From: an uncultured Candidatus Entotheonella sp. | Lineage (GTDB): Bacteria > Tectomicrobia > Entotheonellia > Entotheonellales > Entotheonellaceae | DNA: 64,000 nt | Reading direction: 5' to 3' | Assembly (NCBI GenBank): GCA_951828535.1 | Contig: OX639990.1 | Span: forward strand, 2,529,300 to 2,593,299 | In this document: positions 1,783 through 25,752 of the stretch, piece by piece | Numbering within the stretch: position 1 is the first letter of the stretch | Layout of the letters: each line of letters opens with the position of its first letter | Translations under genes and position numbers: made by a program | The notes under the pieces: model-generated | What the model was told of the DNA's origin: nothing | The model's input: only the letters and a program-made list of their open reading frames with translations | The model's database searches: none

Positions 1783-2772
1783 CTACACCCGAAACGCTTC
1801 ATAGGTTGCCCGTTCGCCGCCAATGACACGCGCCAGTTGGCGTGCTTGCAGCTCAAAGGCGCGGCCATAGGTCGTCTTGCCCGCCGCGCCGGGCAGTGAA
1901 ACCGTCTCATGGAGCCGGGTATCAAAGCGGCTGAGGAAGCGTGTCAAGGCGGCCTTGGTCAGACGTGGGCCGCGGCTGCTGCGTTGGACGTCGCCGGGCT
2001 TGATCTCGCGGCGGTTGATCACCGTGAGCACGATGGAATCCACAACGACGGCGCGCCATTCCTCGATGAGGTCCGACACCAGCGCCGCATGGCCGTATTT
2101 ACGCTGGTGAAAAAAGCCCTGATAAGGGTCCAGGCCGACAATGTTGACGGCGGCGAACATGCGGTTGTAGAGCAGGGTATAGCCCAGGCTCAGGAGCGCG
2201 TTCACCGGGTCCGGGGGCGGGTGCGCCTGGCGCTTTTGGAAATCGAAGTCCGTCGCCTTCAGAAAGGTGCGCCACACTTGGTAATACATTGCCGCCGCGG
2301 CGCCTTCATACCCCAGAAGCTGTTGCAGGTCGCTGGCCGCGCGCACCTTCGGCAACAGCGCCTCCAGGCTTTTGAGGCGGCGCTTGCCATCGTGCGTGAG
2401 GCGTCTCTGGCGGCGGCAAAACGCCGCGGCATTGTGAATCTTGCCTGCCACGACGGACCGGGCGACGCGCCGGCAAAAGGCGTCGTCCAGCGAGCGGCGG
2501 TATTGCTGCTGACGGAGCGCGGCGTCTTTCGCCCCGGCCGGCTGCAAGCGCCCGCGGTAGGTGCCGCGGCTGGAAAGATAGGCCACGTCGATGCCGTTTT
2601 CGAGCACGTATTGCACCGCCGGCGTGGTGAAACCGGCGTTGCCGAAGACGACGATCTGGTCGACGTGCAGCGCCGGCGTCTCGTACAGCAGTTTCCCGTC
2701 CTTGCGAACCAGCAGGCGCTCACCGGTCCGGGTCACGGTGGCGCCCTGTTCGGTCAGGTAGAGAGTTCCCAC
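1783..2772 (-). CDS. cas1: CRISPR-associated integrase Cas1
   Basis: Metal-dependent integrase that inserts spacers next to the leader. The product has 329 residues. The likely catalytic residues are visible: Glu in LLGYEGAAA (about residue 146), His in YQGFFHQRKYGHAAL (about residue 215) and Asp in SDLIEEW. The start is GTG at 2772 with a GGGAGGAGG site upstream; it overlaps the end of the reverse transcriptase gene by 19 bp, so the two are probably coupled in translation. Unlike many type III systems, Cas1 is not fused to the RT here. Confidence 0.96.
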   Translation of the reverse strand: MGTLYLTEQGATVTRTGERLLVRKDGKLLYETPALHVDQIVVFGNAGFTTPAVQYVLENGIDVAYLSSRGTYRGRLQPAGAKDAALRQQQYRRSLDDAFCRRVARSVVAGKIHNAAAFCRRQRRLTHDGKRRLKSLEALLPKVRAASDLQQLLGYEGAAAAMYYQVWRTFLKATDFDFQKRQAHPPPDPVNALLSLGYTLLYNRMFAAVNIVGLDPYQGFFHQRKYGHAALVSDLIEEWRAVVVDSIVLTVINRREIKPGDVQRSSRGPRLTKAALTRFLSRFDTRLHETVSLPGAAGKTTYGRAFELQARQLARVIGGERATYEAFRV

Positions 2773-3764: not shown

Positions 3765-3850
3765 GTCCATCCTCCCTTGGCTGCATGCCCGCGGCGGCGG
3801 GCGAGGTGTGCACGATTGCTACAGGAGGCGAAACGATAGCAGGACGGAAG

Positions 3851-9508: not shown

Positions 9509-10424
9509 GTTTCAATCGTCCTTAGACGTATCTCTTAATGACTACAGTATTGGTTCGGATGGTTCGGATTGGCGACGATTTGTTTCAATCGTCCTTAGAC
9601 GTATCTCTTAATGACTACAGAGAAAAGAATCCTCCTACAAATTGGATGAGACAATGTTTCAATCGTCCTTAGACGTATCTCTTAATGACTACGGGCATCC
9701 GAACCGTTAGACGATGTCAAAGCCGTAAGTTTCAATCGTCCTTAGACGTATCTCTTAATGACTACACGGGGCCATGTGCCACGAAGTCTGGGTGCAGGTA
9801 AAGTTTCAATCGTCCTTAGACGTATCTCTTAATGATTACAGGAGGGGTGACATGATGATTGTTCACCAATATTAAGTTTCAATCGTCCTTAGACGTATCT
9901 CTTAATGATTACCCGAATATACCCCCACCTTGTGGGTAAGGATTACAAGTTTCAATCGTCCTTAGACGTATCTCTTAATGATTACGTACCCGGCGGGAAT
10001 CCGGTGCACGATCCGCAACAGTTTCAATCGTCCTTAGACGTATCTCTTAATGATTACCTGGAGCGCTTGGAGCGTGGACAATGCCACCATTAATGTTTCA
10101 ATCGTCCTTAGACGTATCTCTTAATGATTACGTCTCAGGGGTCCCGCCGTCACCGCCGTATTGATTAAGTTTCAATCGTCCTTAGACGTATCTCTTAATG
10201 ATTACGGCGACCTCGCAGGTGTCCGTACCCGGCGGGAATCCGTTTCAATCGTCCTTAGACGTATCTCTTAATGATTACCCGGGTTGGAGGTCTCCGCCAC
10301 AGGTAGCAAAATAAGTTTCAATCGTCCTTAGACGTATCTCTTAATGATTACGCGACACGTTGATGCGTGTACCGTTTTCCAGAGAGTGTTTCAATCGTCC
10401 TTAGACGTATCTCTTAATGATTAC
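9509..10424 (-). CRISPR. CRISPR array: 13 repeats of 37 bp, 12 spacers of 35-37 bp
   Basis: Repeats start at 9509, 9582, 9656, 9729, 9803, 9876, 9949, 10021, 10095, 10169, 10242, 10315 and 10388. On the plus strand they begin GTTTCAATCGTCC. The first four end TGACTAC and the other nine TGATTAC. On the minus strand the repeat ends GGACGATTGAAAC, giving the 8-nt handle AUUGAAAC usual for type III crRNAs, so the array is read leftward from a leader at 10425 onward. Decayed repeats at the left end agree. Spacers 9986-10020 and 10206-10241 share 17 bases. Each spacer keeps at least one open frame in plus-strand (target RNA) sense. Confidence 0.97.
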
Positions 10425-11030: not shown

Positions 11031-12266
11031 TCATTCCCAGACGATGCGCTTGGGATCTACCTGCAACCCGTAGCGCCGGGCATCGCCTCTGCCGCGCGCC
11101 GTCATGAGATAGTGCGGTGGGATGCCGGCCTTGCGAGCCCGCTCTCGGCTCTTGGAGATGAGTTGGCTGAACCGCTCTCCGAGATGATCGCGGTCCTTTG
11201 GATGGGTGCTGACCAACTGGGCCCGAAGCTGGCCCAAGAAACCAAAGCCGGCGACGAGTACATAGTCGTCGATGCCAAACGCCTGTCCGCTGGCTTGCGT
11301 GATGCGGCAAAACGTGTCGTCCAGGTCGCCAATCGTGATTTCTTTAAGGCGCACAAAGCCGGCTTGCCCACGGCCCTGCTGCCGTATGGACGCCAGCAGG
11401 GCATGCAGAAAGAATTCGTACACGGTGAGGCGCAGGCGCCGGTTGGAGACGGTGAGGGTTTTTGAGCGGCAATTGATGCGGAAGCTGTGCGTCTCTTCGA
11501 GTACGTCAAGGTCTTCCTGAGCCCGCCGCACCATGTCGTTGTAGTCACTGTCGCGCTGCTGCATCCAGTCGGGAATCAGCCCGCGCAGCCGGATGAAGGG
11601 AATATCCGCCAGGTCAATGGCCGCCTGCTCGGTTGAGAGGGTGCGCACCTGCCCCTCTTGGTCTCGTACTTCCAGGGTGCGCGGCTTGGGCGGGATGTAA
11701 TAAAACTCGCGGTGGGTTTCAAACGGCTCGCTCACCAGCACGTGCGACAACCGGTCCTGCACCCGGCCAAAGAGCTGCATGGCCGCGGTGAGGTAGATGC
11801 TCATGGTTTTGCGGCCGCCGGCGGCCGAGGCATACAGGCGGGTATGGGGATCGCGGGTCAGCTCGCGGACGATGTCGCAGATCTGGTTGGCGGCGTAGCC
11901 GTTGTCGTCCACCGAGCGAATGTCGTCGAGCATGCACCCGTCCGGCGTGCGCAGCAGGGTGATCGTTTTTTCCGAAAAGGTGATACTGGCCGGGTCGATG
12001 CCGTAATCGCGGCAAAAGGCTCCGAAATGCCCCGCCTGCGGGTCGAGAAAGGACTGGACGATACGGTCGCGGCCGCTGCGGGTGGTGATGACGCGAATCT
12101 CGTCCACCCGCACCCCCTGCTGCTGCGTCAGGGCGTACAGGGTTTCGGTGATGATCTGCGGCGTCAGCCCGGCGACGCACAGCAGGATGTGGCGGCAGGC
12201 GCCGCGGCGTTGCTGGCCGAGATCATTGTCGCGGGTGTCCCGCAGATTCGAATTTTCCATAGCCAC
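11031..12266 (-). CDS. CARF-domain CRISPR accessory protein, NE0113 (TIGR02584) family
   Basis: Expected to sense cyclic oligoadenylate made by Cas10. The N-terminal Rossmann-like CARF domain (about residues 15-200) shows ILLCVAGLTPQIITETL, VITTRSGRDRI and the ligand-binding loop ASAAGGRKTMSIYL. The C-terminal half (about 230-411) includes LTVYEFFLHALLASIR and a final DARRYGLQVDPKRIVW, which read like a winged-helix domain; no HEPN R-x4-6-H motif was seen. The start is taken as GTG at 12266 with GAGGAG 6 bp upstream; ATG 12260 is the alternative. It is downstream of csx3 in the same direction. Whether it is a nuclease or a regulator is open. Confidence 0.85.
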   Translation of the reverse strand: MAMENSNLRDTRDNDLGQQRRGACRHILLCVAGLTPQIITETLYALTQQQGVRVDEIRVITTRSGRDRIVQSFLDPQAGHFGAFCRDYGIDPASITFSEKTITLLRTPDGCMLDDIRSVDDNGYAANQICDIVRELTRDPHTRLYASAAGGRKTMSIYLTAAMQLFGRVQDRLSHVLVSEPFETHREFYYIPPKPRTLEVRDQEGQVRTLSTEQAAIDLADIPFIRLRGLIPDWMQQRDSDYNDMVRRAQEDLDVLEETHSFRINCRSKTLTVSNRRLRLTVYEFFLHALLASIRQQGRGQAGFVRLKEITIGDLDDTFCRITQASGQAFGIDDYVLVAGFGFLGQLRAQLVSTHPKDRDHLGERFSQLISKSRERARKAGIPPHYLMTARGRGDARRYGLQVDPKRIVWE

Positions 12267-12323
12267 GTTAATCTCCTCAGAATTGCTGGCCGAGGTCATT
12301 GTCAGGGGTGTCTCGCAGCAGGT
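12212..12323. repeat. Local ~36-bp duplication at the 5' end of the CARF gene
   Basis: TTGCTGGCCGAGATCATTGT at 12212 recurs as TTGCTGGCCGAGGTCATTGT near 12284, and both continue through GGGTGTC and CGCAG. The inner copy encodes LRDTRDNDLGQQ in the CARF protein; the outer copy encodes LRDTPDNDLGQQ at the end of a 32-residue open frame (12277-12375). Confidence 0.6.
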
Positions 12324-12395
12324 GCATGACGAGATGACCCGGGCGTGGCGTGTCCCAGCGTAGGGGTTTACGCATCGCATGCAATGTTCAGAGCG

Positions 12396-12701
12396 TTATT
12401 GGATCCAATCTCCGATCGCGAATTCGGGATCGTGACTTATGGCCACGACGTACTGATTCTTCTTCGGGTCAAAGCAGGCAATTGCTCCAAACAGATGGGA
12501 CAACTTATGCGCCAAGACCATAGCGACCGGCAATGACGCGGGACCGTTGATCTTGACCAAGCCACCGCCGGCTAACTCGCCGTCGGTGCGCATCTCGTCC
12601 AGCCGCTGGGCGGCGTCTTTGACGATCTGGTCGTTATTTGCCCGCTCGCCAAATCCAATACGTAAAACGTCTCCCTCACGGGTAATGTTATAAGTAGCCA
12701 T
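12396..12701 (-). CDS. csx3: Csx3-family ring nuclease (Crn3)
   Basis: Csx3/Crn3 proteins bind and degrade cyclic tetra-adenylate, turning off CARF effectors. The 101-residue protein matches a single Csx3 domain along its length: MATYNITREGDVLRIGFG, then the conserved GGLVKINGPASLPVAMVLAHKLSHLF with the histidine of the family, and IACFDPKKNQYVVAISHDPE ending in GDWI. In some bacteria this domain is fused to a P-loop ATPase; here the likely partner is the separate gene at 13010-13606. A degenerate REP-like stretch separates the two. Confidence 0.85.
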   Translation of the reverse strand: MATYNITREGDVLRIGFGERANNDQIVKDAAQRLDEMRTDGELAGGGLVKINGPASLPVAMVLAHKLSHLFGAIACFDPKKNQYVVAISHDPEFAIGDWIQ

Positions 12702-13009: not shown

Positions 13010-13606
13010 TCAGACAGCCAGAAGGTGCCGGGCCAACGCCTGGATCATGGGCCGCGCAGCAATGTCCTCGCCCCTTTCAAGGCGATGGACGCTTCCACGG
13101 AGAATGTTGTCGCAACCAACACCTTTAACAACATCTCTCGCGCCGTGGTAGTCGGAAAACAGTTCCGCTACCACGGTCAAACGGAGTTCTGCTGCAAATC
13201 TCCTCCACTCGTCCATTCTGCTGCACCACGTTTGGCCGGTCTTTGGTTCGTCGCCCGCGATAATCACGATATGTGTGGCGTGTTGACATATCTCACGGTT
13301 AGCGTCGCCAACAATGCCGCCGACGTCCACCATAATGAACATGTCCTTCGGCGAGTCACGCACCCAGCCTGCGGCCAGGCGTACAAATTCCGGCGTGAAC
13401 TGGCCTTTGTAGGCAGCCTTGCACGCCTTGGCGACCCCAGGATCGTTTTTCACCGCTCCCTGGAACCACGCCCCCTCGCCGTCAGGACAGGCTGTAATCA
13501 CATACGGATACGGCGCATCTTCAATCTCGATAAGAGCTTGCTTCAACCCCTCGCGCAGACAGCTTTTGCCGGACCTGGGTGGGCCAGCGAGAACAATTTT
13601 TTTCAA
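13010..13606 (-). CDS. P-loop ATPase/kinase-like protein associated with Csx3
   Basis: The 198-residue product starts LKKIVLAGPPRSGKSCLREG, where GPPRSGKS is the Walker A loop; DMFIMVDVGGIVG supplies a Walker B-like strand, and THIVIIAGDEP follows. This domain type is found fused to Csx3 in other bacteria, and here lies upstream of csx3 in the same direction. Its biochemical role is not established; it may regulate or assist cyclic-nucleotide breakdown. The start is set at TTG 13606 because GGAGGAGG lies 6-7 bp upstream and because the open frame further upstream is low-complexity and overlaps the Uma2 remnant. Confidence 0.75.
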   Translation of the reverse strand: MKKIVLAGPPRSGKSCLREGLKQALIEIEDAPYPYVITACPDGEGAWFQGAVKNDPGVAKACKAAYKGQFTPEFVRLAAGWVRDSPKDMFIMVDVGGIVGDANREICQHATHIVIIAGDEPKTGQTWCSRMDEWRRFAAELRLTVVAELFSDYHGARDVVKGVGCDNILRGSVHRLERGEDIAARPMIQALARHLLAV

Positions 13607-14012: not shown

Positions 14013-16598
14013 TCAGGGAGTTACCTGCGTGATCCTGCCTTGGGCGTCCACCCGCCCGACTTTCATTCTTGTCGTTTGTCCCGGTCGGCCCGGATAGTAG
14101 GGTTTCTGGAAGCGCAACTCTTCGTCCTGATTGTCCAGTAACTTTACCGTCACCCAAGTACCGTCGTTGGCTACGATTTCCACATTGACTCGGTCGCCCT
14201 GCTTGGGGCCTTGGGGGGCTGGGGCCGGATATTGGGTCTGCTGAAGAGAGGGTTCGGGGTGTGGTTTTGAACCCGGTCCACTATGCTCGCCGCCTGTCAG
14301 TTCGCTTGCCCCTTCCGCCTCATCTGTGTCCTGAACGTCCGATACTGTTGGAACCTGTTCTCCGGTCAACTTTCCAAAGACGGACGGATCGGGAAGCACG
14401 GGGCGGTCGCGGTATTCGTTTGTTGGGCGAATAGGCATGTACCGGGTATTCGGGCGCTTATCTTTGTCCAAGTATCGGTCGCCCAGGGAATCCGGCGGAA
14501 ATCCCGGCCACTCCATCATTTTCAGGAGCATGCCGATGCGTTTGAGGTCGGAGAGATGGTGGCAGGGCTGGCCGGGTCGAAGCTCTTCAAGGACATGTTG
14601 CTCGAACGCTTGCGTAAGGGATTTCAGAGTAGCACGGTGTGAAATCTGTTGACCTTCGGCGGCCCCTGTCTGCCAAGTGTTCCCCTCTTCTTTGTTGAAG
14701 AGAGAACCGTAGCGCTTCGAACGGTCGGTGAGGTGCAGCGTTGCATCCAGTTTCACGGCGCCCATGCCCAGCGGCTTACCCATTCCCAGGCTGTGGCAAT
14801 ACGTCTTTTTGGAATCTCCCAGCGGATGCAACGCCCAGCATAACGCCCCCAACTCGCGTTCGGACAAGTTCTCGAAATACACCCGGAACGAGAACGTCAC
14901 CCCCGTCTTGACAGGTTTGAATTGGGTGTGTTGGGTGCTATCGTTCTTGACCCGTCCGTTTCGAAGCCATTGAGGGTCGTTTTCCTTGATGTCGAGGACT
15001 TCTCGATCACCTTGATGCCAGTAGCGTTTATGGCCTCGCAGAACGGTCGATGAGCTGTCGTAGTGATTCAGGTCGTTCCTGCTGTTTGGATTTTGCTGCG
15101 TGAGATAGTGCTGAAACGAAGTCGGCTTGGGTGTGGCCAGAATCCTGGGTGTAATCGTGGCGGGCGACAGCCACAGGTCGTCCTGATTCTGGTCCTGGGT
15201 TAAATGGGCGTCGGTCACAAACACACGGGAGGCATAGGCCCTGCCTTTCTCTCCCTGTTGTGGAATCGTGACGTTGCGCTTTTTCATGTCGCCGAGGTCC
15301 TCCCGGCTCCGAACGAACCCGAAAAGCGCGTCGGCATAATCAATGTCCTCCGGCCGCCGCAGTTCCTTGGGAATCAGGTCCACGGGACGCTGGCGGTATG
15401 GGAGGCGAAACATCTGCGCCCTGCCAAAGAACACCAGTTCGTTGTTTTCCATCAGGAAAAAGACCGGCTCTCCGTCGCGCAGATAGCCGTTCCGGTTTCG
15501 TTGTGCTCCACCGGGCTGCCCGTGAGGGAATGCGGAGGCTTGCCAGCGCGTAATCTGATCGTCGCCGTGAAAGAGGTCAACCAGCCGTCTGTTGATGTCT
15601 GGCTCGTCCCGTTCGTTGGGTATCTTCACGACATTGGGTGCCGGCGAATTGTTCTCAAGAAACACGAAAGCCAAATGCTTGTCGTTCATGTGACCCGTCA
15701 GGACGATCTTCCCCTTTTTCTTTCCCTTTACAAATGATGAAGGATTCGTCGCTTTGCGAAAACGGAGATACAGGTCAGGGTGGCGTAATCTTTTCTTACC
15801 CTGTCTATCCGTTCGGAACTGCTTGGGGAAGAAATAGTCTCCTTCGGATGCGTCCACATCGACCCATATATCTCGGTGCTGATAGGCCCACTTGGGCGTT
15901 TGGTTCGGATTCCTATCATCATGAGCAGTTAAGGGGCGGCCTCCCAACTCATAAAGCTCTCGTCTGTCCGCCAGACAAAAGGCTGCCAGCAAGTCATCTG
16001 TCTCGATGCGAGCAACGATACACTCTTCGATTTCATACGACCCATCAGAACGAATCCGCAAGAATCCTCCCTGGACTCGTGAACGGTAGCTTGAAGCTTT
16101 TGGATCTGGGGTAACCGCAACCTCCCCTAGTTGTTTAACCATTCGCTTATTGTAGTAAGTGCCAATTGCTGATCCATCCACTGTCCGAAAGAACAAACGC
16201 TTGTCCGTCACCCGTTCGACTTTCCCGTAGCTGACAATCTCCAGCAGGCTGCGCAACATGCCGCGCAGGCTGCTGCCGTGAATGACCGGCTGGGTTTTGT
16301 CATGGGTATAGAAAAAGTCGGGCGTGTTTTTGACTTTCTGTCGGAAAGGGCACTCCTCGTCTTCTTCACGCTCTTGGCGCAGAAAGTCTTTAAGAAGAAA
16401 CGGACACCGCACGTACAGGGGGGATTTTGTCGTCAAGGCGACGTCAAAATAACCTGACTTGTTCAGGTACACGTCGTGAGACGGCAAGGCGTCCGCTTGG
16501 TCCACCGCTTTGACGACGCGTTCGGGAAGCGGAACGAAGTTGTAAGGGGCGCTCGCCATACGGTCCGTATTGGGATTTTTGTGTTGCGGTAGGCTCAT
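14013..16598 (-). CDS. Large RAMP (Cas7-type) protein, TIGR03986 family
   Basis: A backbone subunit of type III-D complexes, equivalent to the Cas7 with insertions in III-Dv systems. The 861-residue product opens with FVPLPERVV and SGYFDVALTTKSPLYVR, then PVIHGSSLRGMLRSLLEIV, the RAMP glycine-rich helix (about residues 105-125). A second RAMP-like segment, CHSLGMGKPLGMGAVKLD, lies near residue 640. The tail (about 750-861) is proline-rich and then forms a small OB-like domain (GDRVNVEIVANDGTWVTVKL). It starts at an ATGA overlap with the csx19 stop. It probably carries one of the target-RNA cleavage sites. Confidence 0.87.
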   Translation of the reverse strand: MSLPQHKNPNTDRMASAPYNFVPLPERVVKAVDQADALPSHDVYLNKSGYFDVALTTKSPLYVRCPFLLKDFLRQEREEDEECPFRQKVKNTPDFFYTHDKTQPVIHGSSLRGMLRSLLEIVSYGKVERVTDKRLFFRTVDGSAIGTYYNKRMVKQLGEVAVTPDPKASSYRSRVQGGFLRIRSDGSYEIEECIVARIETDDLLAAFCLADRRELYELGGRPLTAHDDRNPNQTPKWAYQHRDIWVDVDASEGDYFFPKQFRTDRQGKKRLRHPDLYLRFRKATNPSSFVKGKKKGKIVLTGHMNDKHLAFVFLENNSPAPNVVKIPNERDEPDINRRLVDLFHGDDQITRWQASAFPHGQPGGAQRNRNGYLRDGEPVFFLMENNELVFFGRAQMFRLPYRQRPVDLIPKELRRPEDIDYADALFGFVRSREDLGDMKKRNVTIPQQGEKGRAYASRVFVTDAHLTQDQNQDDLWLSPATITPRILATPKPTSFQHYLTQQNPNSRNDLNHYDSSSTVLRGHKRYWHQGDREVLDIKENDPQWLRNGRVKNDSTQHTQFKPVKTGVTFSFRVYFENLSERELGALCWALHPLGDSKKTYCHSLGMGKPLGMGAVKLDATLHLTDRSKRYGSLFNKEEGNTWQTGAAEGQQISHRATLKSLTQAFEQHVLEELRPGQPCHHLSDLKRIGMLLKMMEWPGFPPDSLGDRYLDKDKRPNTRYMPIRPTNEYRDRPVLPDPSVFGKLTGEQVPTVSDVQDTDEAEGASELTGGEHSGPGSKPHPEPSLQQTQYPAPAPQGPKQGDRVNVEIVANDGTWVTVKLLDNQDEELRFQKPYYPGRPGQTTRMKVGRVDAQGRITQVTP

Positions 16599-17188
16599 CC
16601 CTTCGTCTCCTCTGTCAGTTCTACAAGACGGCTGGCGGTGACCCGGACAAAACCGGACGCATCATCTTCTTCAAGATAATGCCGGACGCGAAGACGGAGG
16701 GGCCGGCTTTCCTCGCCGAAAGCGCCTGCAAGGTGAAGGGGAACCACGTGCCGCAGACCCCGCGCGCCGTCGCTCATCACAGTGAAACCCGTGTTTTCTA
16801 GCGGCTTGGCATCGGTGCCCCAGAGCATCTGCCGTTCGTCGAACGTTTCCGTGAACACGGCCTTTGCCGCCGCATCCACGTCACGTATGAGCCTCGCCTG
16901 AAAATGATTGTCCATATCACGCCACAACAGGAGTTCTGCAGCCGGGGAGAAAAGGCGGGCCTGCTGGAGGGTCGCCAATCGAAGCGGAGGCGGTTCAGGT
17001 GCGACGAGTAGCTTGCCCGCCTCCCTTCTGCCCCAGATCACCCCATCGTCCGCATGGGCGAGAAGCCAGTCCAACTGGTATGTTACCGCTTGCGTTTGCA
17101 ACCAGGCTTTCGGGTCGTGAAGGTCCTGGACAGAAACGCAAACGGATTCCACAACAGCCGGACGTGACTCGATCTTTCGCTCGGTCAT
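16595..17188 (-). CDS. csx19: CRISPR-associated protein Csx19 (TIGR03984 family)
   Basis: Csx19 is a small subunit marker of type III-D loci and sits on the backbone of III-Dv complexes; no catalytic role is known. The 197-residue product contains the family segment DWLLAHADDGVIWGR (about residues 40-54) and SPAAELLLWRDMDNHFQARL with LRVRHYLEEDD nearer the C-terminus. Both ends overlap neighbours by ATGA: its start (17188) with the end of the double Cas7 gene, and its stop (16595) with the start of the 861-residue RAMP gene. Codons upstream of 17188 are also open but out of keeping with the family. Confidence 0.85.
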   Translation of the reverse strand: MTERKIESRPAVVESVCVSVQDLHDPKAWLQTQAVTYQLDWLLAHADDGVIWGRREAGKLLVAPEPPPLRLATLQQARLFSPAAELLLWRDMDNHFQARLIRDVDAAAKAVFTETFDERQMLWGTDAKPLENTGFTVMSDGARGLRHVVPLHLAGAFGEESRPLRLRVRHYLEEDDASGFVRVTASRLVELTEETKG

Positions 17189-18621
17189 GGTGCTGACGCT
17201 TTCATGTATGTGTTCAATGCGGCAACGTAATCTTCCAACACGGCACGGCAGCCTGAGACGGTTACTGCGTTGTCCTTGTCGCCCTCTACATGAATCTTCC
17301 ACTCGTGCTGGGTGCCATGTCGATAGAGAAGGTCGGCCTTCTTCCCCTTCAGACGTCCACGCCCAACGCTCCTTTCGCCACCGAGAGCCAAATCGCCTGT
17401 CCACAGGTCTTTGAGAACGAGCAGCAACAAGCCGATTTCGTGGGGTTGAGGCTCGGTCAATTGCAACTCTACCGTCACGGTCGTGTCGTCGTTGCCGAAT
17501 GCCGGTTGCTCGTTGAACAGCGCCGTGTCTCGGGCACCGCCCGTGAAACGATCAATGCTCACACGATTCTGCACAAGATCTGTTTTCGCGTTTTCTACAA
17601 TGCTCTCTTTGAAACCGACACGGCTCGCCTTGCTGGTCTTTCCGAACAGGTCCTCTATCAGAGCATGAGCTTTGGAGGGTCCGAGGGTATTGGCAATCCT
17701 GAACGCCCTGGCTCGCAACGCGCCGGCCAGGCTGGTGCCGGACAAGACCGCCTCCATCTGCCCGTTCACCTGCTTGGCGCGGAGATGTACCATGTCCGGG
17801 CCTTGGTCGTCTTTGCCGCCACCAGAACGAATCAGGAGCGAGCCATCCAGGGAAAAGCTCGCCTTCATGCTGAAGGCATTTCGACGGTCGGCAATCAGAT
17901 CACAGACGCCGAGGGCTTGCTGAATGCTTGACGGTTGTTGTCCGATTAAGGACTGATCACCGTTCTGAATCCAGTCGAGCAGGCCCTGGATAGTTTTCAG
18001 ATCATAGGTCTTGACTCGCCACTCTGAAACCCGAACCTGTCCGTAACCACGTCGCTTGCGTGCTCCGAGCGTAATGTCCCCTTCCGCCAATCCGTTGAGT
18101 GCTGAGGCAAGAGCTTGTTTTAACGTATCAGCATCGTCTGCGGCGCGGATAACCAACTCAAAGCGTAACGGGAATACGCTCCCGGCCTGCCACAGTTGGA
18201 TGTTGAAAAGTGCATCGTTCGCGGCAGTCAGGCTATCGGGACGGATTTGTACGCCGTCTCGCTGCTCGGTCCCGAAACATTTGCCGAAGGCGTCGTCAAC
18301 GATCAAGGGGCTCTGTTCTCCGGTGTCGTCGCCTTTCATGCCGCCGAACAGCAAGACACTCGCAGCCTTTGAACCCTTGGGCTTCGGTCCATACCCCTCT
18401 TCCCGTTCGCGCAGATAGCTCCGCAAAGCACCTGCGATCGACGCCCCGGTCAGGACCGGGGTCTTGCCATCAAAAGGGTCCACCAACAACAGCATATCGG
18501 TAAGATCATCGCCTTCACCGTTGCCGAGATGCGCCGGCGTCTGCAGCACGAGGTCGCCTTCGACAATAAGACGGGACACGATTTTCCGCGATTCCGTTCC
18601 TGACCAAGCCTGTCGTGGCAC
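17185..18621 (-). CDS. Double RAMP protein (two Csm3/Cas7-like domains)
   Basis: The 478-residue product holds two Cas7-type domains in tandem. Domain 1 (about 15-235) has LQTPAHLGNGEGDDLTDMLL and VLTGASIAGALRSYL, and ends with GARKRRGYGQVRV. Domain 2 (about 255-450) has LLIRSGGGKDDQGPDMVHLR, VLSGTSLAGALRARAF and GGERSVGRGRLKGK. The aspartate-rich loops after the glycines are where Csm3 proteins place the RNA-cutting aspartates. This matches the Cas7-2x subunit of III-Dv complexes. Start GTG 18621 with AGGAAGG upstream; the preceding gene stops 14 bp away. Strong synteny with csx10 and csx19. Confidence 0.87.
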   Translation of the reverse strand: MPRQAWSGTESRKIVSRLIVEGDLVLQTPAHLGNGEGDDLTDMLLLVDPFDGKTPVLTGASIAGALRSYLREREEGYGPKPKGSKAASVLLFGGMKGDDTGEQSPLIVDDAFGKCFGTEQRDGVQIRPDSLTAANDALFNIQLWQAGSVFPLRFELVIRAADDADTLKQALASALNGLAEGDITLGARKRRGYGQVRVSEWRVKTYDLKTIQGLLDWIQNGDQSLIGQQPSSIQQALGVCDLIADRRNAFSMKASFSLDGSLLIRSGGGKDDQGPDMVHLRAKQVNGQMEAVLSGTSLAGALRARAFRIANTLGPSKAHALIEDLFGKTSKASRVGFKESIVENAKTDLVQNRVSIDRFTGGARDTALFNEQPAFGNDDTTVTVELQLTEPQPHEIGLLLLVLKDLWTGDLALGGERSVGRGRLKGKKADLLYRHGTQHEWKIHVEGDKDNAVTVSGCRAVLEDYVAALNTYMKASAP

Positions 18622-18634
18622 CGTGTTTTCCTTC

Positions 18635-20293
18635 CTAACGGTTCTGTTTTGCCGCCTGCGCCAAAACGGCATCAACGAGGCGCAGGTTGTACTCATAGGC
18701 CAATTCGGGGGACTTCTCAGCGTCTATGCCTCCGATCCGAGGAAGATCGGAAGGGGTGTCGGCACCAAGGGCCTGCCAGATATCGGCCTCGTCTTTGACC
18801 CGGAAGCGCAACCATTCAAGCAGTCCTTTTCCGGCGACCCGGTCCCGGCCAAACTGTCTTCTGGTGCTCTGGCGGTTCTCAAGGTCTTTAAGATAGGCGA
18901 CAATTCGTGGCCTTCCTGTCTCAGGGGATTGCAGGAGGGCGTCCTGCAGAACGGCGCGTAAACGCGACAGTTGACTGTTCTTCGGGTGATGGACGTATTG
19001 CCCCAGTCTGTTTGCCACCTGGACGACGGCGCCGTCGAGGCGTTTGCGCCACATCCGGTGGACCATGCCGCGGGCAACATCGACCTCGGGAGCCTGAGAG
19101 AGATCAACCGAGTCCGCAAAACTATCTTCCGATACGTTGTCTATGCTCAGCTCAGACTCGTAACCATGCCAGTTTACGGCGATACGTCCAAATCCCTCGG
19201 CCCTGCGTTCTCCGATGCCCTGTTCTTCCAGCTCGCGGATTTTTTCCGGCGCGCATTGCTGCGGCGCCTCATAGACCAGCGTACTCCCCATCTGAACGGC
19301 GAGCGCCTGTGGCAAGGGCAGATTCCATTGGCGGTTGAAACCGCCTGTCTCGCGACCGCGCACAAAGACCGTATCGTTTAAGCCGTTATATGGAGAAAGA
19401 GAGACGCCGAGCCGTTTTTCCAGCGCCTTCGTGATCGCCTGGGAGTCCGTCGTGAACTGTCCACTGGTATCGCGGATCAGCGCGTCACTGAGGAACGTGA
19501 CGACCCATTTTCCGTCAATGTCTGTCGTCGGTACTTCCCTCCAGTTCGTCTCCGGCTCTCCCACCAGCTCAAGGCATGCGTGGCCATATCCCGCGCTGCG
19601 CGAGCGACCGAGGTGTATCTCGCCACTAAGAAAACACTGCAGCACTTGCACGTCTGCGGCATGGTCGCACAGGATGGCGGCTTCAAAGATCTGCCCCGCG
19701 GCCAGGGCGTCGTAGCGGTAGACGGCTCCCGGGTCTTCGCCTGGCGCATGGCCAGGGTCTACCGCCCGGCCAAAGCGGCGGTTGCGGGTAGTATGCACGT
19801 TGATCTGACGCTCGGGTTGAACCAAGCGAATTGTCGCAGGCTTGGCGCCGCCGTCATCGGAGTCCTCATCGTACTCGTCATCGTCATACCCGCTGTCCAA
19901 ATCCCCAGCGTCGTTATCGGAAAACCTGCAAAACGGGGTGTTTACCATCTGCCATTGTTCTTCAGGCGGATTCCGCGAGGCGAAATCATGAATTGGGCCT
20001 TCCTGCCCTTTCATGCGATGCAGGGAAAGCGGTGTAGGAGCCGTGCGGTAATCCAGCCGGTCAAGCGGATAGGCGTTAAGGTATCGGGTTGTTCCATCGA
20101 AAAACAAGCGGCGAGCATTTGCGTCCCCGGCAAGGTCTGCAACCCTGTGAACGTGCTGATATTTCGCAATGACGATGCCTCGCAGGGTGCTTCCGGGTAG
20201 ATAGGGGAAGGATACGCCGCTGTTCGGATCGCCTTCCAAAGCGGTTACAAGCGTGGGTTCCAGCAACGTCACGCGATAGACGAGAACGTTCAT
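18635..20293 (-). CDS. csx10: Csx10 (Cas5-like RAMP) with long helical C-terminal region
   Basis: Csx10 is the Cas5-type subunit that caps the crRNA 5' handle in type III-D. The N-terminal RAMP fold shows FPYLPGSTLRGIVIAKYQH (about residues 30-48) and IHLGRSRSAGYGHACLELV (about 228-246), and a second half with EEQGIGERRAEGFGRIAVNW (about 350-370). An acidic low-complexity loop (DSGYDDDEYDEDSDDGG) interrupts it near residue 140. The last 140 residues are predicted mostly helical (ARGMVHRMWRKRLDGAVVQV onward), like a Cas11 small subunit joined to Cas5. It starts at an ATGA overlap with the preceding Cas7 gene. No separate small-subunit gene was found. Confidence 0.85.
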   Translation of the reverse strand: MNVLVYRVTLLEPTLVTALEGDPNSGVSFPYLPGSTLRGIVIAKYQHVHRVADLAGDANARRLFFDGTTRYLNAYPLDRLDYRTAPTPLSLHRMKGQEGPIHDFASRNPPEEQWQMVNTPFCRFSDNDAGDLDSGYDDDEYDEDSDDGGAKPATIRLVQPERQINVHTTRNRRFGRAVDPGHAPGEDPGAVYRYDALAAGQIFEAAILCDHAADVQVLQCFLSGEIHLGRSRSAGYGHACLELVGEPETNWREVPTTDIDGKWVVTFLSDALIRDTSGQFTTDSQAITKALEKRLGVSLSPYNGLNDTVFVRGRETGGFNRQWNLPLPQALAVQMGSTLVYEAPQQCAPEKIRELEEQGIGERRAEGFGRIAVNWHGYESELSIDNVSEDSFADSVDLSQAPEVDVARGMVHRMWRKRLDGAVVQVANRLGQYVHHPKNSQLSRLRAVLQDALLQSPETGRPRIVAYLKDLENRQSTRRQFGRDRVAGKGLLEWLRFRVKDEADIWQALGADTPSDLPRIGGIDAEKSPELAYEYNLRLVDAVLAQAAKQNR

Positions 20294-20979
20294 GGTTGCA
20301 CCCTTGGCGGTATGGACCGCTGAAACTGTTTGATATGAGCTTCGGTGACATCCTGACCCTGCCCGTCATGCAAGCGGGCAGCGAGGCGGCCTCGGCCGCG
20401 GTTTCGACTGGTTCCCGCCCGCCGGAAGGCCAGAACGCAGGCCGCCAGTAGGGCAAGCGCGTCGGGAGAAGGTTCTTCTTCAAAATCGACCCGGGCGACA
20501 AAGGAGGTCTGGCGCAAGACCACCCGCGTGGAGCGCAAGCTTCCCGTCTCGGGCGCTCCATCTTCATTGACTGCGGTTTGTCTGCGGATGGCGGTAAGCG
20601 ATTCGAGAACGTCGACCGGGCTCAGTTGAGACGGGTTTTTGAGGTCGGCCTTGACCGCGCCGCGGAGAGCCTCCGGCAGCAGAGCGTCTCCGGCGTGCAT
20701 CTTGGCAATACCATCCTGGGTGCCGCCGGCCTCACCAAAGAGGAATCTCGCCGCTTCCTGAAACTTTTGCAGGACCGGAGGCGGAGATGTCTGTTGTTCG
20801 AGAGCAAACAGGATGTTTGCACATTCCTCCACGAGTAGGCCTTTGAGCGTTCGGCCACGCAGGAAGGGAAGGCCGGTTTCGGCATCGTACTCGACCTCCG
20901 TATCCACCAGCCCGGCTACGCCTGCCGCTCCCGCGAAGGTCGCGTCGCTTTGGAGCGTAAAACGGATTTCGTATGTCAT
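20290..20979 (-). CDS. Single-domain Cas7-type RAMP (Csm3-like)
   Basis: The product of about 229 residues is a single RAMP domain: YEIRFTLQSDATFAGAAGVA, the Asp-containing segment LVDTEVEYD, GLPFLRGRTLKGLLVEE (RAMP helix) and AGTSRNRGRGRLAARL. VDTEVEYD lies where Csm3 proteins carry the catalytic aspartate. It sits directly after cas10 and its stop overlaps the csx10 start, so the three are surely one transcript. ATG 20979 was preferred; a GTG at 20997 overlapping the cas10 stop (GTGA) is an equally real possibility. Confidence 0.85.
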   Translation of the reverse strand: MTYEIRFTLQSDATFAGAAGVAGLVDTEVEYDAETGLPFLRGRTLKGLLVEECANILFALEQQTSPPPVLQKFQEAARFLFGEAGGTQDGIAKMHAGDALLPEALRGAVKADLKNPSQLSPVDVLESLTAIRRQTAVNEDGAPETGSLRSTRVVLRQTSFVARVDFEEEPSPDALALLAACVLAFRRAGTSRNRGRGRLAARLHDGQGQDVTEAHIKQFQRSIPPRVQP

Positions 20980-20993
20980 GGGCCTTCGCCCTC

Positions 20994-22640
20994 TCACAGC
21001 GGGATGAACCAGTCGGCAAGCTCTAGGGCGTCAAAATAGGTACAACGGTAACCAAATCGCCCTGTCTTGTTGTAATCGTTCGTAGAGGCGAGAGCGGGAA
21101 GGTCGGGGAGCGGCTTCTCCTCATTGAACATGGTCAGGAAGCGTTCAACGGCCGCATCTCCCTCGCGCAGCATCTCCTGCAGGGCTTTCATCTTGTTGCG
21201 GCGTTCCACCCAGTCAGGCTTTTGAAAGGCGTCAATACCGCTTTGGACAACCTGCCATGAACGGCTCTCGTCGCGAGGGTTCGCGCCCAAGATGAGGGGG
21301 CGCAAATACAGTTTCGTCCCTTCTTTCGTCAAGTATTCGCGTTCCCGAATCCGAGCGATGTCGCCCGTTAGGCCGCCCAGCGCAAAATGCCAGTCGAGGT
21401 AGGCATCATCCATGTGCTTCCCAGGACTATATTTAGCTTCCCGGCGATAGTTTTTCGCTGACCGGCATAATTGGTCGGCCAGTTCATAGGCTTGAGCAAA
21501 CGGATAGTGGGTCTTGACGATCGCTATCCCGGCGCTGGCCGTTATGAGACCGCGGCAGTCGGGGCGTTTCTGCGTTTCTTCCTGAAAGAGTCCGATATAG
21601 GACGCCGCCAAGGATAACCCCAGGCGTCCGTCACATACGAACGTCACGTCGTCTCCGCCAAAGACAATGGGGCGGAACGGCAAGAGAAGCATTTCTTTTT
21701 CATCTTTGGCCAAGGTGACGAAGAGGTCTTCCAAAGAGGGATGCGGAAGACTGCCGTCCTCGATGCGAGAGGCGAGCTTGTCAAGCGTTCCTTTGAGCGC
21801 GGCCTGAGCTGCCTGCTCAACGGCTTGAGAGAGCTTACGTAGCGTGGCGACGTAATCACGGTTCTGCGCTTGTTCCTGGAAAACGTTGCCGATGTCGATG
21901 ATTCGCTGCCCCATGCTGTTGCCGTCAGCATGGACGACCGCCAGATAATTCTGCCTGCCTCTGGTTCCTCCAAGATCGTCGAATTGCTTTGGATAGTCGT
22001 ACCCTTGAGGGGGTGGCAGATGCCGCTGAAGTCGCTCGTCTGCCTCGCTGGGGTTCCCGCCGCGGTCTGTAGCCGCTGAGATTTTGGCGTGAATCTCCTC
22101 GGAAGCGGGATAACCGGGGTCTCCGCCGATGCTGTCCGTAAACCGCACGGCCGGGAGTCCGGTCGAGCGGCACGCCACCGTAACGCCAAGTCCCAGCAGC
22201 GGAGCCGCTTGCACTCTGCAGCGCTTCTGGCTGGCCAAATCCTCGAAGAGTTCCTTTACGGCCACAGAAAGAGAGGCACCGCTCCAGACAAACGCCTTCT
22301 GGACAACAACCAACTGCAGGTTGGGAGCGTCGGTGATGACCCGACGGGAGAGCTTCCGGGTGAAGTCCTTTGCTCCGGACGCATCCCGAAAAAGCGCCAC
22401 GACGTTTCCCCCGGCCGCGTAAAGCACTTCCGCAGCCAGATTGGCCCGTTCAATATGCTTGTTGTCGTCGATTTCTCCGGTGGTAACGTCTTTGACGTTG
22501 TGGGGCGCAGGGAGGGCATCAAGTGCCCATTCTCCCGTTGCCTGGGCAACGAGGTGGGAAGCGCCGATATTTTCCCGGAGCCGGTTACTCCCGAATATGT
22601 ACGGCTGAATCCCCACCGTGTCGACGATCAGTAAACGCAT
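20994..22640 (-). CDS. cas10: Cas10, cyclase-type, lacking the HD nuclease domain
   Basis: Signature subunit of type III effectors; the palm domain makes cyclic oligoadenylates when target RNA is bound. The 548-residue protein starts directly with a palm-like segment LLIVDTVGIQPYIFGSNRLR, so no N-terminal HD nuclease domain is present. The active palm shows YLAVVHADGNSMGQ and the metal-binding GGDD in IVFGGDDVTFV (about residue 328), both intact. A zinc-finger CxxC pair was not obvious. Start ATG 22640; a GTG at 22652 overlaps the upstream stop (GTGA). It is the second gene of the effector operon. Prediction: no target-DNA cutting, but active signalling. Confidence 0.93.
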   Translation of the reverse strand: MRLLIVDTVGIQPYIFGSNRLRENIGASHLVAQATGEWALDALPAPHNVKDVTTGEIDDNKHIERANLAAEVLYAAGGNVVALFRDASGAKDFTRKLSRRVITDAPNLQLVVVQKAFVWSGASLSVAVKELFEDLASQKRCRVQAAPLLGLGVTVACRSTGLPAVRFTDSIGGDPGYPASEEIHAKISAATDRGGNPSEADERLQRHLPPPQGYDYPKQFDDLGGTRGRQNYLAVVHADGNSMGQRIIDIGNVFQEQAQNRDYVATLRKLSQAVEQAAQAALKGTLDKLASRIEDGSLPHPSLEDLFVTLAKDEKEMLLLPFRPIVFGGDDVTFVCDGRLGLSLAASYIGLFQEETQKRPDCRGLITASAGIAIVKTHYPFAQAYELADQLCRSAKNYRREAKYSPGKHMDDAYLDWHFALGGLTGDIARIREREYLTKEGTKLYLRPLILGANPRDESRSWQVVQSGIDAFQKPDWVERRNKMKALQEMLREGDAAVERFLTMFNEEKPLPDLPALASTNDYNKTGRFGYRCTYFDALELADWFIPL

Positions 22641-22648
22641 GGCTCGCC

Positions 22649-23935
22649 TCACGAATGACTCTGTTGTTTAATCCACGCCTTTGTATGTTTTTTCAGGTCT
22701 GCAAGGTGTTGTTGTCCGAAGACCTTTATGCGTTCATCACCGCCGGCATCCAGAAAGAGGTTGCGGGTTTCTGCCTGTAAGCCCTCCGGATCATTGCTGC
22801 AGCAAACCAGGGCAACGCAGGCCTCGTCGCCGCCCATTTGACGGGCGCGAATCACCGCCTCGAATAGCTTGCGCTTCAACCGGCTCCTGTCGCCTCTGGT
22901 GTCACGTGCCGTACTGCAAGAAAAAGCGAAAAGCTGATAGCCTCGGATCGCGACGACGTCAAACTCAAAATCAGTTACTCGCATTAGGGGTTTGACGTTC
23001 ATCAATGCGTCATGCAGGTTCAATGTATCAGCGCACTCCTGCAAGACGGCTAGCAAGGCCGATTCCAGCCACTTCCCGTCAAGCCAATTGCAAAATTCGT
23101 CCGTTCTCACACCATAATTACACTGACCCGCCGCGGATTGTAAGCAGAGGTTCCCCCCGCCCTGGCCAAGTTCCTTGTGGATTGCACATGCCACTTCAGC
23201 CAAAGCACCAGTAGTCGGCAGGCATAGAGTCAGCCGGTTGAGATCATATTGATTTTTCCAGTTGTTGTTGGCTTTTTGGCCTATTTTGCATTGATCGTAG
23301 AGCACCTCGTTCTTCCAATCACGCCATATCTGCGGACCCTTTGCATGAAGATTAATCAGTGCCTGAGCGGTTCCGGGCAGGACAGGCTTGCATGAAGGAG
23401 ATGGTTTCAGTTCCCACCCATGCAGAGCCAGGAGTTCCTCCAGAGAAATTTGTATCTTGTCCCCGACGCATGTCTTGGAGGCTGAAGCACCGCTAGCTGA
23501 ATCGTCTGGGTCAATTATCATCTCCAGAGTTCTCGCGTTGAGATAGCTGAAATGAGTCCTCGGCCTGGACTGCTGCTCTTTGGCCCGCTGCTCAACTGCT
23601 CGATACGCATGGACGCCCATCGTTTTGGTCCCACCCGTGTAGTGCAATCCCACGGAATTGGACTGGATTTCTTGTAATGCCTCTTCGACCTGCTTGGCTA
23701 TGCAAACAGGGTCCGATTCATCCACCTCCTTCATTCGTATTTTTACTGCAGGTTTTTTACCTTCGATCCAAGGCTTCAAATTCAGAGCTATGCCGTGGGA
23801 GTCCTGCGAGTGAATCATGGTGATTGTCGCCTTTTCTGCTGTGAGCAACAGTCCGGCAACGGCATTGGGAAGCGGGTTGCTGCCAACAAGCAAAATGAGG
23901 TGATCCGATTTGGGCAAATTTTCACAGGTCTCCAT
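22649..23935 (-). CDS. CARF-DUF1887 protein (Can2/Card1-like signalling effector)
   Basis: The 428-residue protein joins an N-terminal CARF domain (LILLVGSNPLPNAVAGLLL, and the ligand loop LHYTGGTKTMGVHAYRAVEQ) to a C-terminal DUF1887 restriction-endonuclease fold (GKWLESALLAVLQE, FEFDVVAIRGYQLFAFSC, LKRKLFEAVIRARQMGGDEA). In Can2/Card1 enzymes this fold cuts nucleic acid when cyclic tetra-adenylate binds. The Asp of the FEFDVV strand is kept, but the usual E-x-K of the next strand reads SCS here, so catalysis may differ or be lost. ATG 23935 has AAGGAGG 6 bp upstream. It heads the effector operon. Confidence 0.85.
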   Translation of the reverse strand: METCENLPKSDHLILLVGSNPLPNAVAGLLLTAEKATITMIHSQDSHGIALNLKPWIEGKKPAVKIRMKEVDESDPVCIAKQVEEALQEIQSNSVGLHYTGGTKTMGVHAYRAVEQRAKEQQSRPRTHFSYLNARTLEMIIDPDDSASGASASKTCVGDKIQISLEELLALHGWELKPSPSCKPVLPGTAQALINLHAKGPQIWRDWKNEVLYDQCKIGQKANNNWKNQYDLNRLTLCLPTTGALAEVACAIHKELGQGGGNLCLQSAAGQCNYGVRTDEFCNWLDGKWLESALLAVLQECADTLNLHDALMNVKPLMRVTDFEFDVVAIRGYQLFAFSCSTARDTRGDRSRLKRKLFEAVIRARQMGGDEACVALVCCSNDPEGLQAETRNLFLDAGGDERIKVFGQQHLADLKKHTKAWIKQQSHS

Positions 23936-24740: not shown

Positions 24741-24890
24741 ATGAAACACGACACCCACGAAACCGCGCAGCAATTCGCGGCCGCTGGTATCCCTGACAAG
24801 CAGGTGGAACGGATTGAGGGCGCGGTATATATGGACTCACCAGCGTCCCGCTATCTGCCGCACCTGCCCCATGCCCACCGCAGTGCGTGA
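24741..24890 (+). other. Short open frame, probably a gene fragment
   Basis: A 49-residue frame starting MKHDTHETAQQFAAAGIPDK resembles the first residues of small DUF1640-type coiled-coil proteins, then passes into IEGAVYMDSPA, which resembles the Uma2 strand seen at 13659-13991. Its end overlaps the cas6 3' end antisense. It is more likely debris than a working gene. Confidence 0.3.
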
Positions 24891-25676
24891 CCCGACCCCG
24901 GCAAACAGCGCGTAGCGCGCCAGCAGATGCACGACCCGCAGCACCGCTTCCGGCGTGCCGCGCTGCGCCCGGTAGCGGCACCTGCCGACGAAGCCCTGCT
25001 GGTACCAGACCTGCCGCGACGCGCCTTTGGCGTATCGCTGCACCCGCGTTTGCAACTCGTAGGCATCGACGTCGAGACAGGCTGCGAAGGCGTCTTCCAG
25101 GTCGTCGGGCAGCAGCGCCGGCGCATAAGCCTGCCAGCGCTGAAGGAGGGAACCGAAGACGCGACGCGCGTCCGGCCACAGCACCGCGCGGCCCTGCGAA
25201 AGAAAAGCGGTCGGCGAGACGAACTCCAGGGTCAACAGGGGAGCGGCGCCTGCCGATTCCTGCCACGTGGCGTGATACAGGTCGTCGTACGATTGCCGTT
25301 GCGCCCAGTCGTGCCGGCGCGCGTCGCTGCTGACCGTGACCACCTCGAAGCGTTGCCGGTCCAGTTCCAGGGTGCGCGGCGGCTGTGCCTCGATGCTCTC
25401 CAGCATGTGGGACAGCGCCGGGGCTACGCTGCTGACCCGAAACCAGTAGGTCTGCCCGGGGCGCAGGCGCAACCGCTCGTCCTCGACGGTAAACGGCCCT
25501 TGCAGAGGCGAGGCGGCCGCGGGTTTGAGACCAGCCTCGTCGTGCAGGGCCGCGGCCATGTCCGGCTGCCGGCCGCCGATCAGTCCGAGGGCGCAAGCCC
25601 AGACCGCCCGCCCCATGGTCTTGGGCAGGGTTATCTCGGCGGTTGGCTGTATCACGAACACCGTGCTGCGCAGCAT
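24837..25676 (-). CDS. cas6: CRISPR pre-crRNA endonuclease Cas6
   Basis: Cuts the array transcript within each repeat to leave an 8-nt 5' handle. The 279-residue product has two ferredoxin-like halves and the C-terminal Cas6 signature GFVGRCRYRAQ, followed by HLLARYALFAGVGSRTAVGM with the glycine-rich loop (about residues 240-270). A histidine-containing active-site segment is not obvious from the N-terminal half. ATG 25676 preceded by GAGGTGGG. It stands alone, in the same direction as the effector operon but 0.7 kb upstream of it. Confidence 0.87.
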   Translation of the reverse strand: MLRSTVFVIQPTAEITLPKTMGRAVWACALGLIGGRQPDMAAALHDEAGLKPAAASPLQGPFTVEDERLRLRPGQTYWFRVSSVAPALSHMLESIEAQPPRTLELDRQRFEVVTVSSDARRHDWAQRQSYDDLYHATWQESAGAAPLLTLEFVSPTAFLSQGRAVLWPDARRVFGSLLQRWQAYAPALLPDDLEDAFAACLDVDAYELQTRVQRYAKGASRQVWYQQGFVGRCRYRAQRGTPEAVLRVVHLLARYALFAGVGSRTAVGMGQVRQIAGRW

Positions 25677-25752
25677 CGTGATCCCACCTCTGTGACCCAT
25701 CCCCTGAAGGGTCCATCCTCATGTTGCGGCATGGGCATGGAGGAGAACCGTC

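What the first reader, a model, noticed from the sequence alone, without database searches (positions are those of the whole stretch)
17185..22640. Type III-D effector with the parts of III-Dv but Cas7 and Csx10 still unfused
Seen: order cas10, single Cas7, Csx10 with a ~140-residue helical tail, double Cas7, Csx19, 861-residue Cas7-type protein, most joined by ATGA or GTGA overlaps. Known: the III-Dv complex is made of a Cas7-Cas5-Cas11 fusion, a Cas7 doublet, a Cas7 with insertion, Csx19 and Cas10. Inference: the Cas7 gene and Csx10 (Cas5 plus a Cas11-like tail) are co-linear with that fusion, separated only by a 4-bp overlap, so this may be a pre-fusion state on the path from multi-subunit type III to fused effectors.
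Basis: partly seen in the sequence, partly recalled or inferred. Interest (0 to 1): 0.75.

Follow-up and report, generated by a model that had tools for sequence, protein, structure and literature searches.

The report
Unfused sister of III-Dv CRISPR effector
This is an ordinary, probably working type III-D CRISPR immune operon whose Csx10 protein carries a built-in Cas11 subunit; it belongs to a widespread family that is the unfused sister of the solved III-Dv complex, and its relatives show that Cas7-Cas5 fusion happened more than once or was also undone.

Summary
In detail: on the minus strand lie cas10, single cas7, csx10 with a helical tail, double cas7, csx19 and an 861-aa insertion-type cas7, although the stated coordinates cover only four of the six genes. 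The tail is a Cas11 domain. It aligns with the Cas11 part of the III-Dv protein by sequence, and its model (pLDDT 95.6) matches that part at Z 13.9, with Csm2 proteins next. The three catalytic aspartates and the Cas10 GGDD of III-Dv are conserved.

It is not a rarity. The same unfused operon occurs in about 80 fetched loci (cyanobacteria, Chloroflexota, Bacillota and others), and PADLOC already has a full-length profile for this Csx10.

The 'pre-fusion' reading is only partly supported. In cas10, cas5 and cas7 trees III-Dv is the sister of the unfused clade, not nested in it. A second Cas7-Cas5-tail fusion clade in Chloroflexota branches below both (AU test rejects one fused clade, p = 0.0016), and a third Cas7-Cas5 fusion sits inside split III-D1. 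So fusion recurred, or fission occurred once; counting changes cannot decide. Gene order is co-linear from split III-D1 to III-Dv. New member of a known kind.

The parts
20994..22640 (-). cas10, no N-terminal HD domain found; palm with GGDD at residues 332-335 of the 552-aa ORF
   Evidence: PADLOC Cas10d E 2e-131, Pfam Cas10 palm2; GGDD in register with III-Dv Cas10 306-309; only Cas10 palm2 match in the genome
20290..20997 (-). single cas7 (235 aa), matches the N-terminal Cas7 of the III-Dv fusion; catalytic Asp32
   Evidence: PADLOC PDLC02113 E 5e-71 and N-terminus of fused models PDLC02091/02089; phmmer to 8s9t_A residues 5-207 E 0.0012; D32 aligns with III-Dv D26
19160..20293 (-). csx10, Cas5 domain (residues 1-378)
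   Evidence: TIGR02674 residues 1-376 E 1.8e-44, below its cut-off; model aligns to Cmr3/Csm4-type Cas5 chains, Z up to 21 over residues 1-377
18638..19093 (-). csx10, C-terminal Cas11 domain (residues 401-552), behind a low-confidence linker at about 380-400
   Evidence: phmmer to 8s9t_A through residue 544; tail-only model pLDDT 95.6; Z 13.9, rmsd 2.6, 142 residues to 8s9t_A 623-776, then Csm2 chains Z up to 8.6
17185..18621 (-). double cas7 (Cas7-2x); likely start GTG 18621; Asp42 and Asp276 counted from there
   Evidence: PADLOC PDLC02111 E 2e-127; phmmer to 8s9t_D Cas7-2x E 9.6e-18; D42/D276 align with III-Dv D33/D246
16595..17188 (-). csx19 (197 aa)
   Evidence: TIGR03984 E 3.6e-38 over cut-off; PADLOC Csx19 E 1.2e-37
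14013..16598 (-). insertion-type cas7 (861 aa), TIGR03986
   Evidence: TIGR03986 E 9.4e-122; PADLOC PDLC02114 E 4.5e-171; PDB 9wxh_D E 3e-15 and 8s9t_E (III-Dv TIGR03986 chain) E 5.3e-9
22649..23935 (-). Card1-like CARF-PDDEXK effector; stop codon overlaps the first possible cas10 start (GTG 22652)
   Evidence: PADLOC CARF4 PDDEXK E 2e-105; Pfam Card1 endonuclease 5.8e-6
11031..12380 (-). CARF protein of the NE0113/Csm6-named family
   Evidence: PF09623 E 4e-48; TIGR02584 E 9e-66
12396..12701 (-). Csx3
   Evidence: PF09620 E 1.1e-5 over cut-off
13010..13606 (-). Csx3-associated AAA/P-loop protein (likely TTG start at 13606)
   Evidence: PADLOC Csx3-AAA E 1.7e-55; start by ribosome-binding site
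24837..25700 (-). cas6
   Evidence: PF10040 E 2.1e-18; PADLOC Cas6d E 5.8e-30
9509..10424 (-). CRISPR array: 13 repeats of 37 nt, spacing 72-74; reverse complement of the repeat ends in ATTGAAAC
   Evidence: the strand is inferred from the ATTGAAAC handle
1783..2772 (-). cas1, with a separate reverse transcriptase gene (2754-3770) and cas2 (about 1526-1741)
   Evidence: PF01867 E 1.6e-90 and PF00078 E 7.3e-36; PF09827 E 1.2e-21

Best explanation
The operon encodes a six-protein type III-D effector. A crRNA cut by Cas6 from the neighbouring array is held by Cas5 (front half of Csx10), the single Cas7, the two Cas7 units of the double protein and the insertion-type Cas7. The Cas11 domain at the back of Csx10 folds back through a flexible linker onto the Cas7 row, and Csx19 braces Cas5 against Cas10. 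Target RNA is cut at three Cas7 sites, and Cas10 makes cyclic oligoadenylates that switch on the CARF proteins next door. It works as III-Dv does, with Cas7 as a free chain. In evolution it belongs to a widespread unfused clade that is the sister of III-Dv; it most likely keeps the gene state from which III-Dv fused, while Cas7-Cas5 fusion also arose separately in other III-D lineages. Shown here: gene content, Cas11 fold of the model, conserved catalytic residues, sister position. Inferred: assembly, activity and direction of change.
For: Domains and order. Cas11 tail: phmmer E 6.6e-20 to III-Dv Cas7-Cas5-Cas11 running to residue 544; model pLDDT 95.6; Foldseek top four all III-Dv; Z 13.9 to the Cas11 part, then Csm2; profile comparison with stand-alone III-D1 Csm2 probability 63, E 7e-5, 111 columns. 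Catalysis: D32, D42 and D276 align with III-Dv D26, D33 and D246, shown catalytic in PMC11026444; GGDD kept; R446 aligns with III-Dv R678. Same operon in about 80 loci, with a 4-nt cas7/csx10 overlap in 55 of 81. Trees: III-Dv is sister of the unfused clade for cas5, cas10, cas7 and concatenated. Split III-D1 has cas10-cas7-cas5-csm2-cas7-cas7-cas7, co-linear. A Cas7-Cas5 fusion inside split III-D1 shows that fusion recurs.
Against: The Chloroflexota fused clade lies below both groups, so an early fusion followed by a fission in this clade needs no more changes than two fusions. Trees are 'quick' ones with long branches; the careful run did not finish. Only the best 80 of 210 related loci were kept, so unfused loci nearer to III-Dv may have been missed. 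Csx19 found no PDB match by sequence. No complex was modelled.
Confidence: 0.78

Rival explanations
1. Post-fission state: Cas7, Cas5 and Cas11 were fused in the common ancestor of the Chloroflexota fused clade, III-Dv and this clade, and the single Cas7 was split off again here.
For: The tree (split III-D1, (Chloroflexota fused, (III-Dv, unfused))) gives equal counts for one fusion plus one fission and for two fusions; one fused clade is rejected, p-AU 0.0016. Sequence similarity between the two fused groups runs from Cas7 into the start of Cas5.
Against: Split III-D1 is unfused with similarly tight junctions. Cas7-Cas5 fusion also arose in L138 next to a stand-alone Csm2, so repeated fusion is the less special assumption. 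The Chloroflexota tail shows no detectable similarity to either Cas11 tail, which may mean a separate origin (five sequences only).
Confidence: 0.3
2. The tail of Csx10 is a helical extension unrelated to Cas11, and Cas11 is supplied elsewhere.
For: Pfam and NCBIfam models do not cover the tail; helical bundles give middling structure scores easily (note).
Against: Z 13.9 over 142 of 151 residues to the III-Dv Cas11 part with the next rows Csm2; sequence alignment with III-Dv through the tail; in split III-D1 a csm2 gene stands at exactly this place between cas5 and the next cas7.
Confidence: 0.03
3. The locus is decayed or inactive and its arrangement is accidental.
For: A transposase gene lies between the adaptation genes and the array.
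Against: All reading frames are open, catalytic residues are intact, the array has 13 repeats, and the arrangement is conserved across phyla.
Confidence: 0.03

Closest known systems
Type III-Dv effector of Synechocystis sp. PCC 6803 (PDB 8s9t; PMC11026444)
   Same: Same gene order and domains; same three catalytic aspartates; Cas11 fold; Csx19 and insertion-type Cas7
   Different: There Cas7, Cas5 and Cas11 are one 791-aa chain; here Cas7 is a separate gene with a 4-nt overlap. It is a sister clade in the trees.
Unfused III-D operons of cyanobacterial plasmids (Nostoc ATCC 53789, Anabaena cylindrica PCC 7122, Planktothrix, Sphaerospermopsis; L012-L015)
   Same: Identical six-gene order, Csx10 with the same tail, Csx19, TIGR03986 protein
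   Different: 34-37% identity in Csx10; other accessory genes
Split type III-D1 (loci L136, L137, L149-L155, L189-L191, L222)
   Same: Co-linear order; Cas5 followed by the small subunit; single Cas7 before Cas5
   Different: Csm2/Cas11 is its own gene and the two middle Cas7 units are separate genes
Chloroflexota Cas7-Cas5-tail fusion clade (L186, L187, L217-L221)
   Same: Same order and double Cas7
   Different: Fused Cas7-Cas5 with a tail not recognisably similar to Cas11; csx19 not detected; branches below III-Dv and this clade
Type III-E Cas7-11
   Same: Double Cas7 and insertion-type Cas7 match Cas7-11 domains
   Different: III-E is a single chain without Cas10 and Cas5

Membership tests
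Type III-D CRISPR-Cas | csx10-type Cas5 and (often) csx19, per PMC11026444 | tested here: met
   PADLOC Cas5_IIId E 3e-133; TIGR03984 Csx19 over cut-off. TIGR02674 Csx10 is below its cut-off (152.5 of 177.3).
Type III-D CRISPR-Cas | Cas10 in the III-D group | tested here: met
   Best PADLOC model Cas10d E 2e-131; cas10 tree groups it with III-D loci
III-Dv | single Cas7-Cas5-Cas11 fusion protein | tested here: not met
   cas7 ends at 20290 and csx10 starts at 20293; two open frames
III-Dv | Cas7-2x, Csx19, Cas7-insertion, Cas10 with GGDD | tested here: met
III-Dv | three Cas7 catalytic aspartates (D26, D33, D246) | tested here: met
   D32, D42, D276 in the alignment
III-Dv | falls inside the III-Dv clade | tested here: not met
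   sister clade in all trees
III-Dv | 332-kDa complex with one copy of each subunit on a 37-nt crRNA | not testable with these tools
   needs purification
Split III-D1 | stand-alone Cas11 (Csm2) gene | tested here: not met
   Cas11 is the C-terminal domain of Csx10; no Csm2 match in the genome by PDLC01474
Unfused six-gene III-D clade (PADLOC PDLC02090) | Cas5-Cas11 protein matched full length, cas7 gene directly upstream | tested here: met
   PDLC02090 residues 1-551 to 1-496 of 499; order as in 81 loci

The most novel reading that the evidence does not exclude
Fusion of Cas7 to Cas5 (with or without Cas11) is convergent within type III-D: it arose separately in III-Dv, in a Chloroflexota clade and in at least one split III-D1 lineage, always by joining neighbours without reordering, so III-Dv is one of several parallel outcomes and not a single step on the road to III-E. 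The six-gene clade with its Cas5-Cas11 protein is the common base form, for which no solved structure turned up here.
Probability: 0.5. Interest if true: 0.5.

Novelty: new member of a known kind. Interest (0 to 1): 0.36.

Why it matters
PMC11026444 presents III-Dv as an apparent intermediate between multi-subunit III-D1 and single-protein III-E, with the operon order kept. The six-gene clade supplies the stage between split III-D1 and III-Dv (Cas5-Cas11 and Cas7-Cas7 joined, Cas7-Cas5 not), and it occurs in many cyanobacteria. The extra fused lineages make it testable whether fusion is a repeated outcome. It also gives a Cas11 identity to a Csx10 tail that the Pfam and NCBIfam models used here leave uncovered.

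Tried and rejected
A scan of viral contigs found no relative. The tail alone matches no Cas11 model in PADLOC or Pfam, only PDLC02090. A careful maximum-likelihood tree did not finish in the time limit. Similarity at the start of Cas5 between the two fused groups (AR..GN..E.L..IPG) was considered as a shared fusion mark but is partly present in split III-D1, so it does not decide. The papers with DOI 10.1038/s41586-021-03886-5 and 10.1038/s41579-019-0299-x are not in the library, so what they already say about unfused III-D operons could not be read. Csx19 has no PDB match by sequence.
Full report
What is in the sequence. On the minus strand of the window, six genes follow each other: cas10 (20994-22640), a single cas7 (20290-20997), csx10 (18635-20293), a double cas7 (17185-18621), csx19 (16595-17188) and an 861-residue insertion-type cas7 of family TIGR03986 (14013-16598). 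Four of the five junctions are 4-nt overlaps (GTGA or ATGA); the csx10/double-cas7 junction is not, since the likely start of the latter is a GTG at 18621 behind a ribosome-binding site, near where homology begins. The interval in the finding covers only the first four genes. Around the operon lie a Card1-like CARF nuclease, a CARF protein of the NE0113 family, Csx3 and a Csx3-type AAA protein, cas6, an array of 13 repeats, cas1, cas2 and a separate reverse transcriptase gene. The genome has one Cas10 palm2 match, so this is its only type III effector by that test.

The tail of Csx10. By phmmer, Csx10 residues 119-544 align with residues 320-768 of the III-Dv Cas7-Cas5-Cas11 protein (E 6.6e-20), which includes the Cas11 part. 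The multiple alignment of unfused and fused proteins runs through the tail, with an invariant Q441 and L442. A model of the tail alone, from 48 related tails, has mean pLDDT 95.6. Foldseek's four best matches are the four III-Dv entries. VIA-align gives Z 13.9, rmsd 2.6, 142 of 151 residues to 8s9t_A 623-776, and the next rows are Csm2-type (Cas11) chains of type III-A complexes at Z up to 8.6. The tool warns that helical bundles score easily; here sequence and structure agree. The full model aligns to III-Dv at Z 34 (rmsd 11, so the relative placing of the two domains differs from the complex) and to Cmr3/Csm4-type Cas5 chains over residues 1-377, with a low-confidence linker near 380-400.

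Catalytic residues. The III-Dv paper (PMC11026444) shows D26, D33 and D246 to be the three cleavage aspartates. They align with D32 of the single Cas7 and with D42 and D276 of the double Cas7 here; the Cas10 GGDD is in register. R678 of the III-Dv Cas11 part, proposed there as a catalytic base, aligns with R446, though this position varies among relatives.

How common it is. The plasmid search returned the same six-gene unfused operon in four cyanobacteria, and fused versions in Nostoc edaphicum and Synechocystis 6803. The scan of 84,980 species genomes found 210 relatives. The best 80 were fetched: where gene calls are complete they carry the same unfused order, in cyanobacteria, Chloroflexota, Bacillota, Planctomycetota, Deinococcota, Acidobacteriota and others. 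In all, 81 loci have an unfused Csx10 with a detected tail, and 55 of 81 loci tested for it have the 4-nt overlap between cas7 and csx10. PADLOC already holds a profile (PDLC02090) that covers this Csx10 end to end. So the arrangement is known to databases, even if the tail is not named there.

Split relatives. Loci with a stand-alone Csm2 have the order cas10, cas7, cas5, csm2, cas7, cas7, last cas7. The order is the same as here, with Csm2 exactly where the tail is. The window-type tail profile matches the Csm2 profile weakly (probability 63, E 7e-5 over 111 columns). The simplest reading is that the neighbours cas5+cas11 and cas7+cas7 were joined on the way to the six-gene form.

Trees. In cas5, cas10 and cas7 trees rooted on split III-D1, the III-Dv proteins form one clade (support 98-100) that is the sister of the whole unfused clade, which holds the window. 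In Chloroflexota a further set of Cas7-Cas5-tail fusions was found. In concatenated trees it branches below both, and holding all fused proteins together is rejected (p-AU 0.0016). Locus L138, inside split III-D1 with its own csm2, has another Cas7-Cas5 fusion; the tree then needs three changes between fused and split. These trees are quick ones with long branches, and the careful run did not finish.

What this means for the claim. The unfused state here is either retained, in which case III-Dv and the Chloroflexota clade fused separately, or it is the result of one fission after an early fusion. The counts are equal. I favour retention (about 0.65) because fusion is seen to recur in L138, because split III-D1 is unfused with equally tight junctions, and because the Chloroflexota tail is not recognisably the same. 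In either case the window is a cousin of III-Dv and not its ancestor.

Within the window's own family, one genome (G003) has both a III-Dv-type fused operon (L126) and a split III-D1 (L151), and another (G002) has a divergent unfused one (L125). Such loci have been exchanged between lineages or kept side by side. Baaleninema simplex PCC 7105 likewise has an unfused (L035) and a fused (L098, L128) system.

Mechanism. By homology with III-Dv: Cas6 cuts the array transcript (the reverse-complemented repeat ends in ATTGAAAC, the usual type III handle from general knowledge), the six proteins assemble on the crRNA, three Cas7 sites cut target RNA at 6-nt steps, and Cas10 signals to the CARF proteins. 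All of this beyond sequence and model is inference.

Verdict. A real and probably intact III-D operon, a new member of a widespread known clade. The Cas11 reading of the tail is confirmed at the level of sequence and predicted fold; the pre-fusion reading is plausible but not shown.

Noticed in passing
L186, L187, L217-L221: A Chloroflexota clade of Cas7-Cas5-tail fusions distinct from III-Dv, with the double Cas7 and no detected csx19; its tail is not recognisable as Cas11 by sequence.
   Followed up: partly
L138:8962-10959 (-): A Cas7-Cas5 fusion next to a stand-alone csm2 inside split III-D1: fusion of Cas7 to Cas5 without Cas11.
   Followed up: partly
L126 and L151 (genome G003): A genome of the window's own family holds both a III-Dv-type fused operon and a split III-D1 operon.
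   Followed up: partly
window 1526-3770: Reverse transcriptase gene directly upstream of and overlapping cas1, with cas2 after it: RT and Cas1 unfused, suggesting possible spacer acquisition from RNA.
   Followed up: no
window 8228-9451: Transposase with an rve integrase domain between the adaptation genes and the CRISPR array.
   Followed up: no
window 9509-9771: The four repeats at the low-coordinate end read GACTAC and the other nine GATTAC, consistent with the trailer end and a - strand transcript.
   Followed up: no
window 12396-12701 and 13010-13606: Csx3 and its AAA/P-loop partner are separate genes here; PADLOC has models with both in one protein.
   Followed up: no
window 14013-14312 (residues 763-859 of the 861-aa protein): C-terminal part of the insertion-type Cas7 has a weak match to Csx21 (PADLOC E 0.0033), possibly an added domain.
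   Followed up: no
window 24180-24674 (+): Small protein with a hydrophobic N-terminal stretch and tandem 33- and 54-base repeats, between cas6 and the CARF gene on the opposite strand.
   Followed up: no
L136:6085-7034 (-) and L137:7738-8612 (+): Some split III-D1 loci carry two Csm2-like genes in tandem after cas5.
   Followed up: no
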